A DNA stretch of 64,000 nucleotides, taken from contig JAUVZY010000016.1 of the NCBI GenBank assembly GCA_030602315.1, forward strand, positions 1 to 64,000, written 5' to 3'. The notes under the pieces are model-generated. The model saw only the letters and a list, made by a program, of their open reading frames with translations, was not told the DNA's origin and did no database searches. A program made the translations under genes and the position numbers. Source of the DNA: Pseudomonadaceae bacterium (GTDB taxonomy: Bacteria; Pseudomonadota; Gammaproteobacteria; Pseudomonadales; Pseudomonadaceae). This document shows, piece after piece, positions 22,193 to 62,370 of the stretch. Every line of letters begins with the position of its first letter. The stretch's first letter is position 1.

Positions 22193-23296
22193 TCAGATGA
22201 CGATCAGTTCGGCGTTCAGCGCACCGGCGCGCTCCAGCGCCTGGAGAATGCTCATCACATCGTCCGGGGTCGCGCCCAGGCTGTTGACCGTATTGATGAT
22301 GCTTTCCAGGCTGGCGCCTTCGGGCCACTTGAACATCGGATTGGTCTGCTGATTGACGTCCACGTCCGACTGCGGCGTGGCCACCGTCTGCCCGCGCGAG
22401 AAGGCGTTGGGCTGGCTGACCTGCTGGCTCTCGCTGATGGTCACCGTCAGGGTGCCGTGCGACACCGCGGCGGCGCGCACGCGCACGCCCTGGCCGACCA
22501 CCACCGTGCCGGTGCGGCTGTTGAACACCACCTTCGGCCGGGTGCGGCCTTCTTCCACTTCCACCTGCTCGAGCAGGGCCATGAAGCTGGTGCGCTGGCT
22601 GGCCGACTGCGGCGCGCGGATGCTCACCTTGGTGCCGTCCAGCGCCTGTGCCGCGCCGGGGCCGAAGACCTTTTCCAGCGCGCTGACCACCCGGGCGGCG
22701 GTCTGGAAGCTCGGCTGGCGCAGGTTGAGCATGATGTCGGGACGGGCGTTGAAATCGCTGGGGATCATCCGCTCGATGGTCGCGCCGTTGGCGATCAGCC
22801 CGGTGTTGGCGTGGTTGATCGCCACGCTCGAGCCGCTCTTGCCCTCGGCCTTCAGGCCGCCGACCACCAGCGCGCCCTGGGCCAGCGCGTAGACCTCGCC
22901 GTCGACCCCGCGCAGCGGCGTCATCAGCAGCTGGCCGCCGCGCAGGCTCTTGGCGTCGCCCAGCGAGGAGACCGTCACGTCGATGCTCTGGCCCGGGCTG
23001 TAGGACGGCGGCACCATCGCCGTCACGGTCACCGCGGCGACGTTCTTGAGCTTGGGGTCGGTGCCCGGCGGCAGGTTCACGCCGAACTGCTCGACCATGT
23101 TGGCCACCGACTGGCTGGTGAACTTCACCTGGTTCTTGTCGCCGGTGCCGTCCAGGCCGACCACCAGGCCATAGCCGATCAGCTGGTTGCCGCGGATGCC
23201 CTCCACGTCGACCAGATCGAGCAGCGGCACCGCCGCCGCACGCAGCGGCAGCAGGGCCAGGAACACAACGGGCATCAACGCCAGGATGCGACGCAT
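22193..23296 (-). CDS. flgI: Flagellar P-ring protein FlgI (lateral)
   Basis: A 367-residue periplasmic protein that forms the P ring round the rod in the peptidoglycan layer. It has a Sec signal peptide ([19 protein letters not shown]). Family blocks include [54 protein letters not shown] and the C-terminal [31 protein letters not shown]. It sits between flgH and flgJ with very short gaps. Confidence 0.97.
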
Positions 23297-27826: not shown

Positions 27827-28183
27827 TCAACGTCCCTCGATTGCCTGGCGCAGACCGCGCAGCTTCATGCCGATGAAGGTCAGGCTGGTCTGGAAATTCA
27901 TCGAATTGCGGGAGAATTCGGCCTGCTCCACCGCCAGCTCGACGGTGTTGCCGTCCTGCGCCGGCTGGTTCGGCACGCGGTACTTGAGCTCGACGGACGG
28001 GCTGCCCAGCGAGGCCAGGGGCGACTCGAAGCGGCGCATCTCGGCGGCGAAATCCAGATCCCGGGCCAGATAGCCGGGGGTATCCTCGTTGGCCAGGTTG
28101 GCGGCCAGCACCTCGCTGCGTTGCAGATGCAGCTCCAGCGCCTGGCGATGGATGCCCAGGCTTTCATCAATGCGAAAACTCAT
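27827..28183 (-). CDS. flgB: Flagellar proximal rod protein FlgB (lateral)
   Basis: The 118-residue protein contains LGIHRQALELHLQRSEVLAANLANEDTPGYLARDLDF and the C-terminal AVEQAEFSRNSMNFQTSLTFIGMKLRGLRQAIEG. It is the first gene of the flgBCDEFGHIJKL run. The sigma54 promoter on its strand at 28220-28235 would start transcription about 25 bases upstream of the ATG. Confidence 0.96.
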   Translation of the reverse strand: MSFRIDESLGIHRQALELHLQRSEVLAANLANEDTPGYLARDLDFAAEMRRFESPLASLGSPSVELKYRVPNQPAQDGNTVELAVEQAEFSRNSMNFQTSLTFIGMKLRGLRQAIEGR

Positions 28184-28207
28184 GCGAACTCTCTCCCTGC
28201 AGGGGTC

Positions 28208-28235
28208 TGGCGCCTTTTTTGCAGAAACCGTGCCG
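28208..28235. promoter_or_regulatory. Overlapping divergent sigma54 promoters for flgA (+) and flgB operon (-)
   Basis: Plus strand: TGGCGCC-TTTT-TTGCA with GG at 28209-28210 and GC at 28221-28222. Minus strand: CGGCACG-GTTT-CTGCA with GG at 28233-28234 and GC at the same 28221-28222. Both have the required 10-base gap between GG and GC. They share the central TGCA, so each -24 element lies where the other would start transcription. Confidence 0.72.
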
Positions 28236-28327
28236 ATCCCGATAACGAGGGCAAACCATTGAATTCTCAGGCGTTTTTCAAGCAGAACAGACCAACCCGA
28301 GCGGCCTGGCTTCCGCTTTTGCGAAGA

Positions 28328-29047
28328 ATGGGGAAATCAGGCGGAAGTATCGTTTCCGCCTGGCTGGTGCTTCTGTGTCTGCTTGAGGCGGCGCACGCCG
28401 AGGCGCGCAAGAGCATCGAAGCGGCGCTGGATGCGCACCTGGCCAGCCGCGCCGCGCTGACCGCCCAGCGCGAGGGCTGGCGCCAGCACCGCCTGCAGAT
28501 CCAGCACAACCTGCCGCCACGCGCCGCCACGCTCGCCGGCTGCAGCACGGCGCTGGAAGTGCGCGGCGCCAGCGGCGCGCTGGAGCCGGGGCGCCAGCGC
28601 CTGGAGGTTGCCTGCCCGGGCGAGGCCGGCTGGCGCTTAACGCTCTTGAGCGAAGTGGAGATCCTGGTCCCGGTGGTATTCGCCCGCCAGCCGATCGAGC
28701 GCGGCACCACCCTTCGCGCCGAGCACCTGGAGCTGCGCGAAATCAGCCTGGGCAAGAGCCGCGATCACTATCTCGCACCAGAACCGCTGCTGGGCATGAG
28801 CAGCAAGCGCAGGATCCGCGCCGGCCAGCAGCTTTCCTCGCGGCTGGTGGACGAGCCGCTGCTGGTGCGTCGCGGCCAGCCGCTGCGCATCAGCGCCAGC
28901 GTCGATGGCATCGAGGCCAGCACGCTGGGCGAGGCCCTGGAAGACGGCAACCGCGACCAGGTGATCCGCGTGCGCAACCAGAGCAGCGGCAAGACCATCA
29001 AGGCGCGGGTGATCGAGGCCGGGGTGGTGTCCAGCGTGCTCGAATAG
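28328..29047 (+). CDS. flgA: Flagellar P-ring assembly chaperone FlgA (lateral)
   Basis: The 239-residue exported protein has a signal peptide (MGKSGGSIVSAWLVLLCLLEAAHA). The SAF/FlgA domain has VFARQPIERGTTLRAEHLELREISLGK, LLGMSSKRRIRAGQQLSSRLVDEPLLVRRGQPL and DQVIRVRNQSSGKTIKARVIEAGVVSSVL. It assists FlgI polymerisation in the periplasm. It is the only flg structural gene on the plus strand here. The ribosome site before the ATG (GCGAAG) is weak; the signal peptide decides the start. Confidence 0.92.
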   Translation: MGKSGGSIVSAWLVLLCLLEAAHAEARKSIEAALDAHLASRAALTAQREGWRQHRLQIQHNLPPRAATLAGCSTALEVRGASGALEPGRQRLEVACPGEAGWRLTLLSEVEILVPVVFARQPIERGTTLRAEHLELREISLGKSRDHYLAPEPLLGMSSKRRIRAGQQLSSRLVDEPLLVRRGQPLRISASVDGIEASTLGEALEDGNRDQVIRVRNQSSGKTIKARVIEAGVVSSVLE

Positions 29048-37727: not shown

Positions 37728-37901
37728 AGCGCGAAATCCTGTGTCGATGTGCTTACAGCAAAACCGGTGCCAGCTTTTAAAACCAATGAAATCAACGGTT
37801 TATCAGCTAGTTACAGTGAAAGACGGCTTCCGCCGCCAAGAGGATCGGACGCAGGCGGAAACGCCTTTTCCGCTTGCAGCGTCCGGACCGTCGCAGACAA
37901 A

Positions 37902-37971: not shown

Positions 37972-38412
37972 TCAATAGGCGGCGCGGGAGTACAGGCAGG
38001 CGGGGTCGGGCTGGCCGAGCAGGCTTTCGAGGATTTCGTGGTGCATGGCCAGCAGCTGGCCGTTGCGCAGATTGAGCGCCTTGCAGGCATGCGCCAGGGC
38101 GGCCAGCGCCTGCCACTTTGCGCCGAGCTCGGCCTGGCGTGGCACCGGATACAGCGCCAGCAGGCGCGTCATGGCCTCGGCGTCCTGCCCCAGGCCAAAG
38201 GCAGCGAGCACCTTGCTGCGCCGGCGGGCGCGCCCGCCCAGGGTGTCGAGCAGGCGCAGGATGTGCTCGTTGAGCTGATCGATCACCGGACAGTCGCGCG
38301 CGAGCAAGCCCTCGTAGAGCGCCTGCATATGGCGCTCGAGGGTACGGTAGTCGCTCAGGTCATCACCGATGTCCTGCTCGATCAACGCCAGCAGCTGCGC
38401 GCGTTTGCTCAA
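37972..38412 (-). CDS. flgN: FlgN-type chaperone for FlgK and FlgL
   Basis: The 146-residue helical protein follows flgM. The N-terminal helix (KRAQLLALIEQDIGDDLSDYRTLERHMQALYEGLLARD) and C-terminal helix (ALAHACKALNLRNGQLLAMHHEILESLLG) fit the FlgN bundle; the second contains the N-x-x-N-G-x-L element of the family. The start is probably the TTG at 38412, which overlaps the flgM stop (TTGA). No ATG is available without entering flgM, and the ribosome site is weak. Confidence 0.8.
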   Translation of the reverse strand: MSKRAQLLALIEQDIGDDLSDYRTLERHMQALYEGLLARDCPVIDQLNEHILRLLDTLGGRARRRSKVLAAFGLGQDAEAMTRLLALYPVPRQAELGAKWQALAALAHACKALNLRNGQLLAMHHEILESLLGQPDPACLYSRAAY

Positions 38413-38693
38413 CGGTCGTGTCCGCGATGGAAGGCCAGGATGCTGGCGGCCAGCGCCTGGGTGCTGGTGTCGAGCTCGCCGTTGGCCAGCGCCTGGCGGA
38501 TCTCGGCGATGCGCTCCATGTCCACGTCCGGCATGCTGCGCAGCGCTTCCTGCAGGCGCTCCACCGGCAGGCCGTCGTTGCGCGGCGCGCGCGCAGGAGC
38601 CGTCTCGGCCGGAGTCGGCGCCTTGGCGACCTGCGCCGCCGGCGCATCGCTGGCGAGGGGGGGCACAGGCTTGAGATGACGATTGATTTCCAT
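38409..38693 (-). CDS. flgM: Anti-sigma28 factor FlgM (lateral)
   Basis: The 94-residue protein has a disordered Pro/Ala-rich N-terminal half (HLKPVPPLASDAPAAQVAKAPTPAE) and the C-terminal sigma-binding region RLQEALRSMPDVDMERIAEIRQALANGELDTSTQALAASILAFH. It should block the FliA-family factor of this locus until it is exported after hook completion. GGAAAG lies before the ATG at 38693. It carries its own late promoter candidate, giving feedback. Confidence 0.93.
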   Translation of the reverse strand: MEINRHLKPVPPLASDAPAAQVAKAPTPAETAPARAPRNDGLPVERLQEALRSMPDVDMERIAEIRQALANGELDTSTQALAASILAFHRGHDR

Positions 38694-44610: not shown

Positions 44611-46020
<1,410 letters not shown>

Positions 46021-46407
46021 GAAAGATACCTGTGCGTATCGTGCGGTCGTTGTGTGCGCGACACGTCCATTCACTTGCGAAGTGCCGCACAGTTGCACGG
46101 CCGATTTAATTCGCAGGAACTTTTTGTCGCTCTTCACATCTGAGGCAGACGCTTGATCGAAAGCGCGTGCCAGGTCACGCACGGACCCTATCCCGCTCGG
46201 CAAAACGCCACCAGACAAAAGCCGTCAAACGTTGTCAGCCCCCGCCCGCTGACCGTGAAAAACCCCTTTTGATTTCTTCTGATTTAACCGAGAAGCCCGT
46301 CACACCTAGACTCTGCCCGTGACAGCGTGCCGGGCCTCCCCGCCAGCCGAGCCTCGCCTCAGACCGCAAAACAAAGGTCGCACCGCTCAGCCAGGACGCC
46401 CTCGCCG

Positions 46408-58078: not shown

Positions 58079-58440
58079 CGGAACCCCAGTGCAGTGGCAA
58101 ACGGCAGGCGCGTTGCAAGTTCCGCACCACGCCGCCCACGCTGGCCCGGCGCACGGCGGGATCGCCCGGCGGATCAAGCACTTGGAATAAAAATTCCCTC
58201 ACAGGAAACACGTTTCGATGCGCTGCCCCTGCACCGCCTTGGCGCCTGGCGCTGCATCGCGGCGCGTCGCGGCCGCTGCGTGGCGGCGCGGCCGGAGGGG
58301 CTGCCCCGCCCCCGGGCCAGACGAGAGCTATTTCCAACGGGGTATCTCCAGCAAGGCAGTTTCGCTTGGGCCTGAAATCTCTAGGGTAATTCTCACGAGG
58401 AAACAAACTTTCCGGATAACCATCGTGAGGAACACCAACA
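58079..58440. other. Intergenic region between divergent kinase and tmm genes
   Basis: It should hold promoters for both directions. GGAAT-AAA-AATTCC (about 58178-58193) is a small palindrome on the kinase side. Near tmm, A/T-rich sequence with TAGGGTAAT (about 58383) could be a -10 region, without a clear -35. Sigma54-like GG/GC pairs here have the wrong spacing. The region 58217-58310 is very GC-rich with no gene visible. Confidence 0.4.
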
Positions 58441-62354: not shown

Positions 62355-62370
62355 TGGCACAGCCCTTGCT
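62355..62370 (+). promoter_or_regulatory. Sigma54 promoter of the Amt-like gene
   Basis: TGGCACA-GCCC-TTGCT, with GG at 62356-62357 and GC at 62368-62369 at exact -24/-12 spacing, close to the consensus. The A/T-rich start region follows, and the gene begins about 120 bases downstream. Nitrogen control by NtrC is the usual use of such a promoter; I did not find a clear NtrC site. A long hairpin (TTTCAGGC...GCCTGAAA, 62263-62295) upstream may end the tdm transcript. Confidence 0.75.

What the first reader, a model, noticed from the sequence alone, without database searches (positions are those of the whole stretch)
28208..28235. Two sigma54 promoters folded onto one -12 dinucleotide drive flgA and flgB in opposite directions
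Seen: TGGCGCCTTTTTTGCA on the plus strand and CGGCACGGTTTCTGCA on the minus strand share TGCA at 28220-28223, each with correct GG-N10-GC spacing. Each -24 sits about where the other's transcript would start. Inference: RNA polymerase-sigma54 can occupy only one orientation at a time, so flgA and the rod/hook operon would be made in mutually exclusive bursts from one site, balancing FlgA chaperone against FlgI.
Basis: partly seen in the sequence, partly recalled or inferred. Interest (0 to 1): 0.68.

Follow-up and report, generated by a model that had tools for sequence, protein, structure and literature searches.

The report
Hook-operon promoter with enhancer inside flgA
The sequence motif is real, but across related bacteria only the half pointing at the flagellar hook operon is conserved, along with control sites buried in the start of the neighbouring gene; the half pointing the other way is a lineage-specific extra that may or may not work.

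Summary
The string is as described: TGGCGCCTTTTTTGCA (+, 28208-28223) and CGGCACGGTTTCTGCA (-, 28220-28235) share one -12 GC. The locus is a lateral-type flagellar cluster in an assembled genome. In 50 lateral-type flgA/flgB loci (the window and 49 family relatives) the flgB-ward sigma54 promoter is in 50 of 50 (one after hand re-anchoring). The mirrored -24 GG is in 8 of 50, and a flgA-ward site of at least 9/12 with GG is in 3 of 50: the window and two genomes of one other genus. What is conserved is a one-way module aimed at flgB: an IHF-like box 32/33 bp and a GGAA-n7-TTCC palindrome 123/124 bp from the -12, in 50 of 50, at or inside the start of flgA. The same module precedes fliD. I read the palindrome as a LafK-like enhancer embedded in flgA. 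Two-way use of the window site remains possible: exact symmetric sigma54 motifs lie between divergent ORFs in 7-13 of 29 hits, depending on the ORF rule, against 1-3 of 55 wrong-spacing controls. Mutually exclusive bursts balancing FlgA and FlgI are unsupported.

The parts
28220..28235 (-). flgB-ward sigma54 promoter, CGGCACGGTTTCTGCA; predicted +1 about 28209-28210, leader of about 26 nt with GGGAGAGAG before ATG 28183
   Evidence: 10/12 to consensus; counterpart in 50 of 50 lateral-type loci (49 at 9/12 or better by script, L050 at 8/12 after hand re-anchoring)
28208..28223 (+). mirror-image sigma54-like site toward flgA, TGGCGCCTTTTTTGCA; predicted +1 about 28234, leader of about 25 nt with GAGGG before TTG 28259
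   Evidence: 10/12; counterpart of at least 9/12 with GG in 3 of 50 loci (window, L048, L050); L017 and L019 also reach 9/12 but lack the GG
28252..28264 (-). IHF-like box ATTCAATGGTTTG (recalled consensus WATCAANNNNTTR, 1 mismatch)
   Evidence: 0-2 mismatches at 32 or 33 bp from the -12 box in 49 of 50 and in L050 after re-anchoring
28341..28359 (.). palindrome GCGGAAGTATCGTTTCCGC, candidate enhancer of the LafK-like activator, inside flgA
   Evidence: GGAA-n7-TTCC at 123/124 bp from the -12 box in 50 of 50; in-frame GGA and TCC codons in 50 of 50; only 2 exact copies of GCGGAA-N7-TTCCGC in the assembled genome
28310..28316 (+). half-site CTTCCGC, 31 bp before the palindrome; one also lies 28 bp before the fliD palindrome
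   Evidence: seen by eye in most relatives
27827..28183 (-). flgB (lateral type), first gene of the rod/hook operon
   Evidence: Pfam Flg_bb_rod
28259..29047 (+). flgA (lateral type), likely start TTG 28259 (alternative ATG 28328)
   Evidence: Pfam ChapFlgA; start analysis of relatives
37757..37772 (-). sigma54 promoter of fliD, TGGCACCGGTTTTGCT; mirror site scores 5/12
37790..37802 (+). perfect IHF-like box AATCAACGGTTTA at the fliD promoter
   Evidence: read
37855..37873 (.). second copy of the palindrome, GCGGAAACGCCTTTTCCGC, upstream of fliD
44611..46218 (-). LafK-like enhancer-binding protein (Sigma54_activat + HTH_8), candidate reader of the palindrome
   Evidence: Pfam; the name LafK is by analogy
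58102..58129 (.). second dual sigma54-like site (10/12 + 10/12) between a sensor kinase (-) and a flavin monooxygenase-like gene (+)
   Evidence: kinase-ward half in 11 of 11 relatives examined, mirror half in 0 of 11

Best explanation
The site is the sigma54 promoter of the lateral flgB rod/hook operon. It is part of a rigid control module: sigma54 -24/-12, then an IHF-like bend site about 32 bp upstream, then a palindromic enhancer about 121 bp upstream, probably bound by the LafK-like activator encoded in the same cluster. Because flgA starts just upstream in the opposite direction, the IHF-like box lies at flgA's start codon and the enhancer within its first codons, so this DNA is both coding and regulatory. 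The flgA-ward -24 arose in this lineage because a -12 ending in TGCA is its own reverse complement, so a suitable GG 12 bp away is enough to create a second promoter-like site. It is either inert or gives weak, opportunistic flgA transcription that loses to flgB when LafK is active. Shown by comparison: conservation, spacing and codon constraint. Inferred: the binding proteins, the start sites and the output.
For: flgB-ward promoter in 50 of 50 loci against a flgA-ward site (at least 9/12 with GG) in 3 of 50. IHF-like box at fixed +32/33. Palindrome at fixed 123/124 in 50 of 50, while the gap from the -12 box to flgB varies from 34 to 64 bp. Codon constraint: GGA 50 of 50 where the rest of FlgA has 21 of 796 Gly codons, and TCC 50 of 50 where it has 69 of 680 Ser codons. 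The exact palindrome occurs twice in the assembled genome, both at sigma54 promoters of this cluster, flgB and fliD. In the family 48 of 52 lateral-type genomes carry at least one exact palindrome somewhere, against 48 of 146 others. LafK-like bEBP in the cluster. In V. parahaemolyticus an rpoN deletion lowers lateral flgB2 expression and RpoN binds that promoter (PMC9817140, abstract and passages).
Against: No protein-DNA or transcript data. No other promoter for flgA was found: a sigma70 scan of 27900-28500 gave 0, so something must still drive flgA. The window holds two dual sites where about 0.02 are expected, more than a lone coincidence predicts. In L048/L050 the mirror half is fully conserved (12 of 12) while the adjoining 14 bp are not (4 of 14) at 77% FlgA identity, though the pair L008/L020, with no mirror promoter, is nearly the same (11 of 12, 4 of 14). 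The IHF-like box overlaps the flgA start codon, so part of its conservation may be the start.
Confidence: 0.74

Rival explanations
1. True bidirectional sigma54 promoter: one -12 serves two -24 elements, polymerase loads in either orientation, and LafK (enhancer upstream of flgB and downstream of flgA's start) fires both. Strong flgB firing represses flgA by steric competition.
For: Both halves 10/12; leaders of about 25 nt with ribosome-site-like sequence on both sides (read). Dual geometry recurs at the same locus in another genus, with the mirror half conserved between two genomes. Exact symmetric sigma54 motifs lie between divergent ORFs in 13 of 29 hits against 3 of 55 wrong-spacing controls with 75 nt slack at ORF starts, 10 of 29 against 1 of 55 with 30 nt, and 7 of 29 against 1 of 55 with none. 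In E. coli the flgA and flgB sigma28 promoters share a -35 (PMC12781870, section 21 and passages).
Against: A good mirror half is absent in 47 of 50 loci. GG at the correct offset is 8 of 50, within 0-13 at other offsets, and loci with at least 5 of 7 matches to the -24 box number 3 at the correct offset and 3 one base away. Relaxed dual sites show little excess: 35 against 30 and 27 with wrong spacing in 340 class genomes, and 3 of 30 of them are divergent.
Confidence: 0.22
2. The plus-strand half is not a promoter but a decoy or repressor: sigma54 polymerase parked in the flgA orientation without productive activation tunes down flgB.
For: Geometry only. sigma54 binding sites overlapping a promoter have been suggested to repress or activate it (PMC3844500, passages).
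Against: Not conserved, and no direct evidence.
Confidence: 0.06
3. The conserved palindrome and IHF-like box are protein-coding constraint on the start of FlgA, not regulatory DNA.
For: They lie in the flgA frame, and residues G and S-A recur.
Against: GGA and TCC are used in every one of 50 loci although both are minority codons in the rest of FlgA. The same palindrome and IHF-like box stand upstream of fliD. Spacing to the promoter is fixed within 1 bp.
Confidence: 0.05

Closest known systems
sigma54 promoters of lateral flagella (V. parahaemolyticus flgB2; LafK hierarchy)
   Same: Lateral flgB operon under sigma54, with a LafK-type activator in the cluster (PMC9817140 and PMC4481668, passages)
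   Different: A LafK-type palindrome, its fixed spacing and its place inside flgA were not in the passages I read; of 40 papers found on LafK and binding sites I saw a listing of 15
E. coli flgAMN/flgBCDEFGHIJ divergent promoters
   Same: Divergent flgA/flgB with overlapping promoters; the two sigma28 promoters share one -35 hexamer (PMC12781870)
   Different: sigma70/sigma28 with FlhDC and MarA, not sigma54
Bidirectional (pseudo-symmetric) promoters of E. coli
   Same: Symmetry lets polymerase bind in two orientations, with steric competition once one side is activated (PMC12825309, abstract and passages)
   Different: The term sigma54 does not occur in that paper's main text
Divergent sigma54 operon pairs (hyc/hyp in E. 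coli; T3SS and orp operons in D. vulgaris)
   Same: sigma54 promoters facing away from each other
   Different: Seen only as passages and reference titles; whether any share a -12 I did not see

Membership tests
sigma54 promoter (flgB-ward) | GG-N10-GC with good match to TGGCACG-N4-TTGCW | tested here: met
   10/12; conserved in 50 of 50 loci
sigma54 promoter (flgB-ward) | bEBP enhancer upstream, often with IHF between | tested here: inconclusive
   IHF-like box and palindrome at fixed spacing by sequence; binding not tested
sigma54 promoter (flgB-ward) | rpoN- and activator-dependent transcript | not testable with these tools
   no expression data for this genome
sigma54 promoter (flgA-ward) | GG-N10-GC match | tested here: met
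   10/12 in the window
sigma54 promoter (flgA-ward) | conservation in the same gene pair | tested here: not met
   3 of 50 loci with GG and at least 9/12
bidirectional promoter | one shared core element with two flanking elements at correct spacing | tested here: met
   shared -12 at 28221-28222
bidirectional promoter | two divergent start sites from the one element | not testable with these tools
   no 5' end data
LafK-type lateral flagellar system | second flagellar cluster with its own bEBP, sigma28, flagellin and motor genes | tested here: met
   bEBP, FliA-like sigma, flagellin, MotA, FliD, FliS, FliF, FliI, FlgN by Pfam; a second flgB on contig C1

The most novel reading that the evidence does not exclude
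A bidirectional sigma54 promoter: one palindromic -12 serves two -24 elements, so a single bEBP event opens DNA toward either flgA or flgB. The class is rare but real, with exact symmetric examples between divergent genes in Desulfobacterota (histidine kinase / PMT_2 protein), Ferrimonas and others. In this genome it has arisen twice by adding a mirror -24 to an old one-way promoter.
Probability: 0.25. Interest if true: 0.68.

Novelty: new variant of a known kind. Interest (0 to 1): 0.45.

Why it matters
If right, the enhancer and IHF-like box that switch on the lateral hook operon are embedded in the start of the neighbouring gene, so flgA coding sequence and flgB control evolve together, and the palindrome is a ready LafK-site motif to test. 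The side result, that exact symmetric sigma54 motifs sit between divergent ORFs more often than wrong-spacing controls, makes bidirectional sigma54 transcription directly testable. Among the papers listed in my searches (0 found; 2 of 2 listed; 20 of 33; 10 of 47; 9 of 9) I recognised none that reports a sigma54 promoter with a shared -12; I read passages of a few, not all.

Tried and rejected
A general excess of dual sigma54 sites: with up to 2 mismatches the correct spacing gives 35 sites, against 30 (one base longer on each side) and 27 (one base shorter) in the same 340 class genomes. Rejected as a common feature. The tool's own control, the pattern read backwards, gives 15 by my count, but it differs in dinucleotides and I do not rely on it.

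Conservation of the mirror -24 in the genus: in none of the 3 other genomes of the genus (one only 70% complete) was a lateral-type FlgA found, so it could not be tested. Class-wide, only two lateral-like FlgB hits stood out among 369 genomes (L057, L058). L058 has sigma54-like sites; neither has the n7 palindrome.

A sigma70 promoter for flgA: 0 found in 27900-28500. A sigma28-like CCCGATAA at 28238 was seen by eye, but no -35 fits and it is not conserved.

Near matches of the cluster in plasmids: none.

Palindrome as a marker of lateral systems: 48 of 146 genomes without one also hold an exact match, some of them recurrent unrelated sequences, and the reversed-pattern control matches in many genomes too, so it is enriched, not diagnostic. 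In G089, G183 and G051 the exact match is not at the flgA site. The 52 lateral-type genomes were counted from the E-values (at most 2.7e-29). I analysed 50 of them; G032 and G051 were not fetched. The palindrome was noticed by eye in 30 of the loci before it was counted in all 50.

The divergent/inside classes come from a crude ORF caller (ORFs of at least 70 aa), not gene prediction. My first rule, without slack at ORF starts, gave 7 of 29; I then allowed 75 nt, giving 13 of 29, and afterwards ran both rules and 30 nt on all four sets: no slack 7/29 against 1/55 controls and 3/30 two-mismatch sites; 30 nt 10/29, 1/55, 3/30; 75 nt 13/29, 3/55, 3/30. Cutting all loci to 1500 bp flanks changes nothing. 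The taxa differ between the sets, and the 13 fall into about 7 independent groups.

Second dual site: I examined the 11 best-matching relatives of the kinase (L203-L213) out of 62 genomes with a match; 8 further fetched loci with weaker matches were not examined.

Full report
What is there. The two 16-mers are exactly as reported and share the -12 GC at 28221-28222. The minus-strand ORF at 27827-28183 is FlgB-like (Flg_bb_rod) and the plus-strand ORF is FlgA (ChapFlgA). The cluster also holds a flagellin, a winged-helix regulator, MotA, a FliA-like sigma factor, FliS, FliD, FlgN, FliI, FliF and a sigma54 activator with a Fis-type HTH by Pfam, and a FlgI ORF on the flgB side recognised by eye (22193-23296). 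The genome is a 2.79 Mb, 78%-complete assembly with a second, distant flgB on another contig. This is a lateral-type second flagellum with a LafK-like activator; the name LafK is by analogy.

Chance. In the window exactly two 28-mers have both halves at 10/12: this one and 58102-58129. Markov copies of the window give 0.0225 per 64 kb, and none of 400 copies had two. A degenerate form occurs only at those two places in the assembly, none with wrong spacing; the three other genomes of the genus have 4 hits, against 1 with wrong spacing, so the degenerate form does arise by chance. Given one true promoter ending in TGCA, a mirror -24 this good has probability of about 0.004.

Conservation. One search found a lateral-type FlgA (E at most 2.7e-29) in 52 of 198 family genomes. 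I analysed 50 loci including the window (L003-L052): 30 came and 20 were fetched. All 50 have divergent flgA/flgB. The flgB-ward promoter is present in all: 49 at 9/12 or better by script, L050 at 8/12 after I re-anchored it by hand. A GG at the mirrored -24 is in 8 of 50, within the range at wrong offsets (0-13). A mirror site of at least 9/12 with GG is in 3: the window (10), L048 and L050 (9 each, one genus); L017 and L019 reach 9 without the GG. The second dual site behaves alike: the kinase-ward half is kept in 11 of 11 relatives examined and the mirror in 0 of 11. In both cases an old one-way promoter carries a mirror -24 here that most or all relatives lack.

The conserved module. Aligned on the -12 box, the loci show an IHF-like box (recalled consensus WATCAANNNNTTR, 0-2 mismatches) at +32/33 in all 50 and a GGAA-n7-TTCC palindrome at +123/124 in 50 of 50, although the gap from the -12 box to flgB varies from 34 to 64 bp. 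Both lie where flgA begins: 47 of 50 have an in-frame ATG/GTG/TTG within 15-60 bp of the -12 box, and the other three (L048, L051, L052) have an ATG at +61. In L020 an in-frame stop at +36 leaves TTG at +39, inside the IHF-like box, as the only start-like codon before the part aligned to FlgA. The palindrome carries in-frame GGA and TCC codons in every locus, against 21 of 796 Gly codons and 69 of 680 Ser codons in the rest of FlgA. In the own assembly the exact palindrome occurs twice: here and upstream of fliD, where a 1-mismatch sigma54 promoter and a perfect IHF-like box stand in the same order. The palindrome-to-promoter distance there is 98 bp instead of 121, roughly two helical turns shorter, and the IHF-like box is on the other strand. 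This is the basis for calling it the activator's enhancer; binding by the LafK-like protein is inferred.

Mechanism. Most likely the LafK-like protein on the palindrome, helped by an IHF bend, opens sigma54 polymerase on the flgB promoter. In the window the plus-strand half could load polymerase toward flgA: a start at about 28234 would give a 25-nt leader with GAGGG before TTG 28259, much like flgB's 26-nt leader. The enhancer would then be downstream, which sigma54 activators can tolerate (recalled). I expect any such flgA output to be weak and to fall when flgB is fully activated, as reported for activated E. coli bidirectional promoters (PMC12825309, abstract and passages).

Do bidirectional sigma54 promoters exist? 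A scan of 257 Gb of genomes for the exact symmetric form TGGCAY-N5-TTGCAA-N5-RTGCCA gave 29 loci; uniform chance would give about 15 (my arithmetic). Of these, 13 lie between divergent ORFs when 75 nt of slack is allowed at ORF starts, against 3 of 55 wrong-spacing loci and 3 of 30 two-mismatch loci. Without slack it is 7 of 29, 1 of 55 and 3 of 30. Five Desulfobacterota-type loci share one arrangement, histidine kinase against a PMT_2-type protein (kinases by Pfam in L093, L097, L100, L102; PMT_2 in L111 and L100; the rest by eye). Two Ferrimonas species share another. With mismatches allowed there is little excess (35 against 30 and 27). So the class looks rare but real in its exact form, and the window's imperfect site cannot borrow much certainty from it.

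Literature. Passages read: PMC12781870 (also section 21), PMC12825309, PMC9817140, PMC4481668, PMC8743547, PMC3844500, PMC4641369; other papers were seen as listings only. Overlapping flgA/flgB promoters are known for sigma70/sigma28. In V. parahaemolyticus RpoN binds the lateral flgB2 promoter but not that of flgM. In some searches I recognised no paper describing a sigma54 promoter with a shared -12; the listings were capped, and subscription journals are mostly missing from that library.

Verdict. Observation confirmed; interpretation partly supported. The flgB half and its embedded enhancer are the solid finding. Two-way firing is possible but unproven, and mutually exclusive bursts balancing FlgA against FlgI are speculation.

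Noticed in passing
58102-58129: Second dual sigma54-like 28-mer (10/12 + 10/12) between a sensor kinase (-) and an FMO-like monooxygenase gene (+); kinase-ward half in 11 of 11 relatives examined, mirror half in none of them.
   Followed up: yes
L093, L097, L100, L102, L111: Exact symmetric sigma54 motif between a divergent histidine kinase and a PMT_2-type protein in Desulfobacterota-type genomes; 28-mers identical in L093 and L111 and one base different in L102. L091 (Calditrichia) has a near-identical 28-mer in a different setting.
   Followed up: partly
L086 1576-1603 and L108 6369-6396: The same exact symmetric sigma54 28-mer (read on opposite strands) in two Ferrimonas species next to a glycosyltransferase gene; an Hpt gene faces it in L086.
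   Followed up: partly
L109 5221-5248: Exact symmetric sigma54 motif between a sigma54 activator gene in which Pfam found no receiver domain (PspF-like architecture) and a weakly PilZ-like gene.
   Followed up: partly
62355-62370: Strong sigma54 site TGGCACAGCCCTTGCT upstream of an ammonium transporter, beside a DUF1989-GCV_T gene: likely nitrogen control.
   Followed up: no
38409-38692 and 37972-38370, minus strand: FlgM-like ORF (by eye; no Pfam hit) and FlgN lie beside fliD rather than downstream of flgA, unlike the flgA,M,N group named for other lateral clusters.
   Followed up: no
family genomes: A recurrent near-identical palindrome GCGGAATCAT(C/G)GCTTCCGC in many genomes, apparently unrelated to the lateral cluster.
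   Followed up: no
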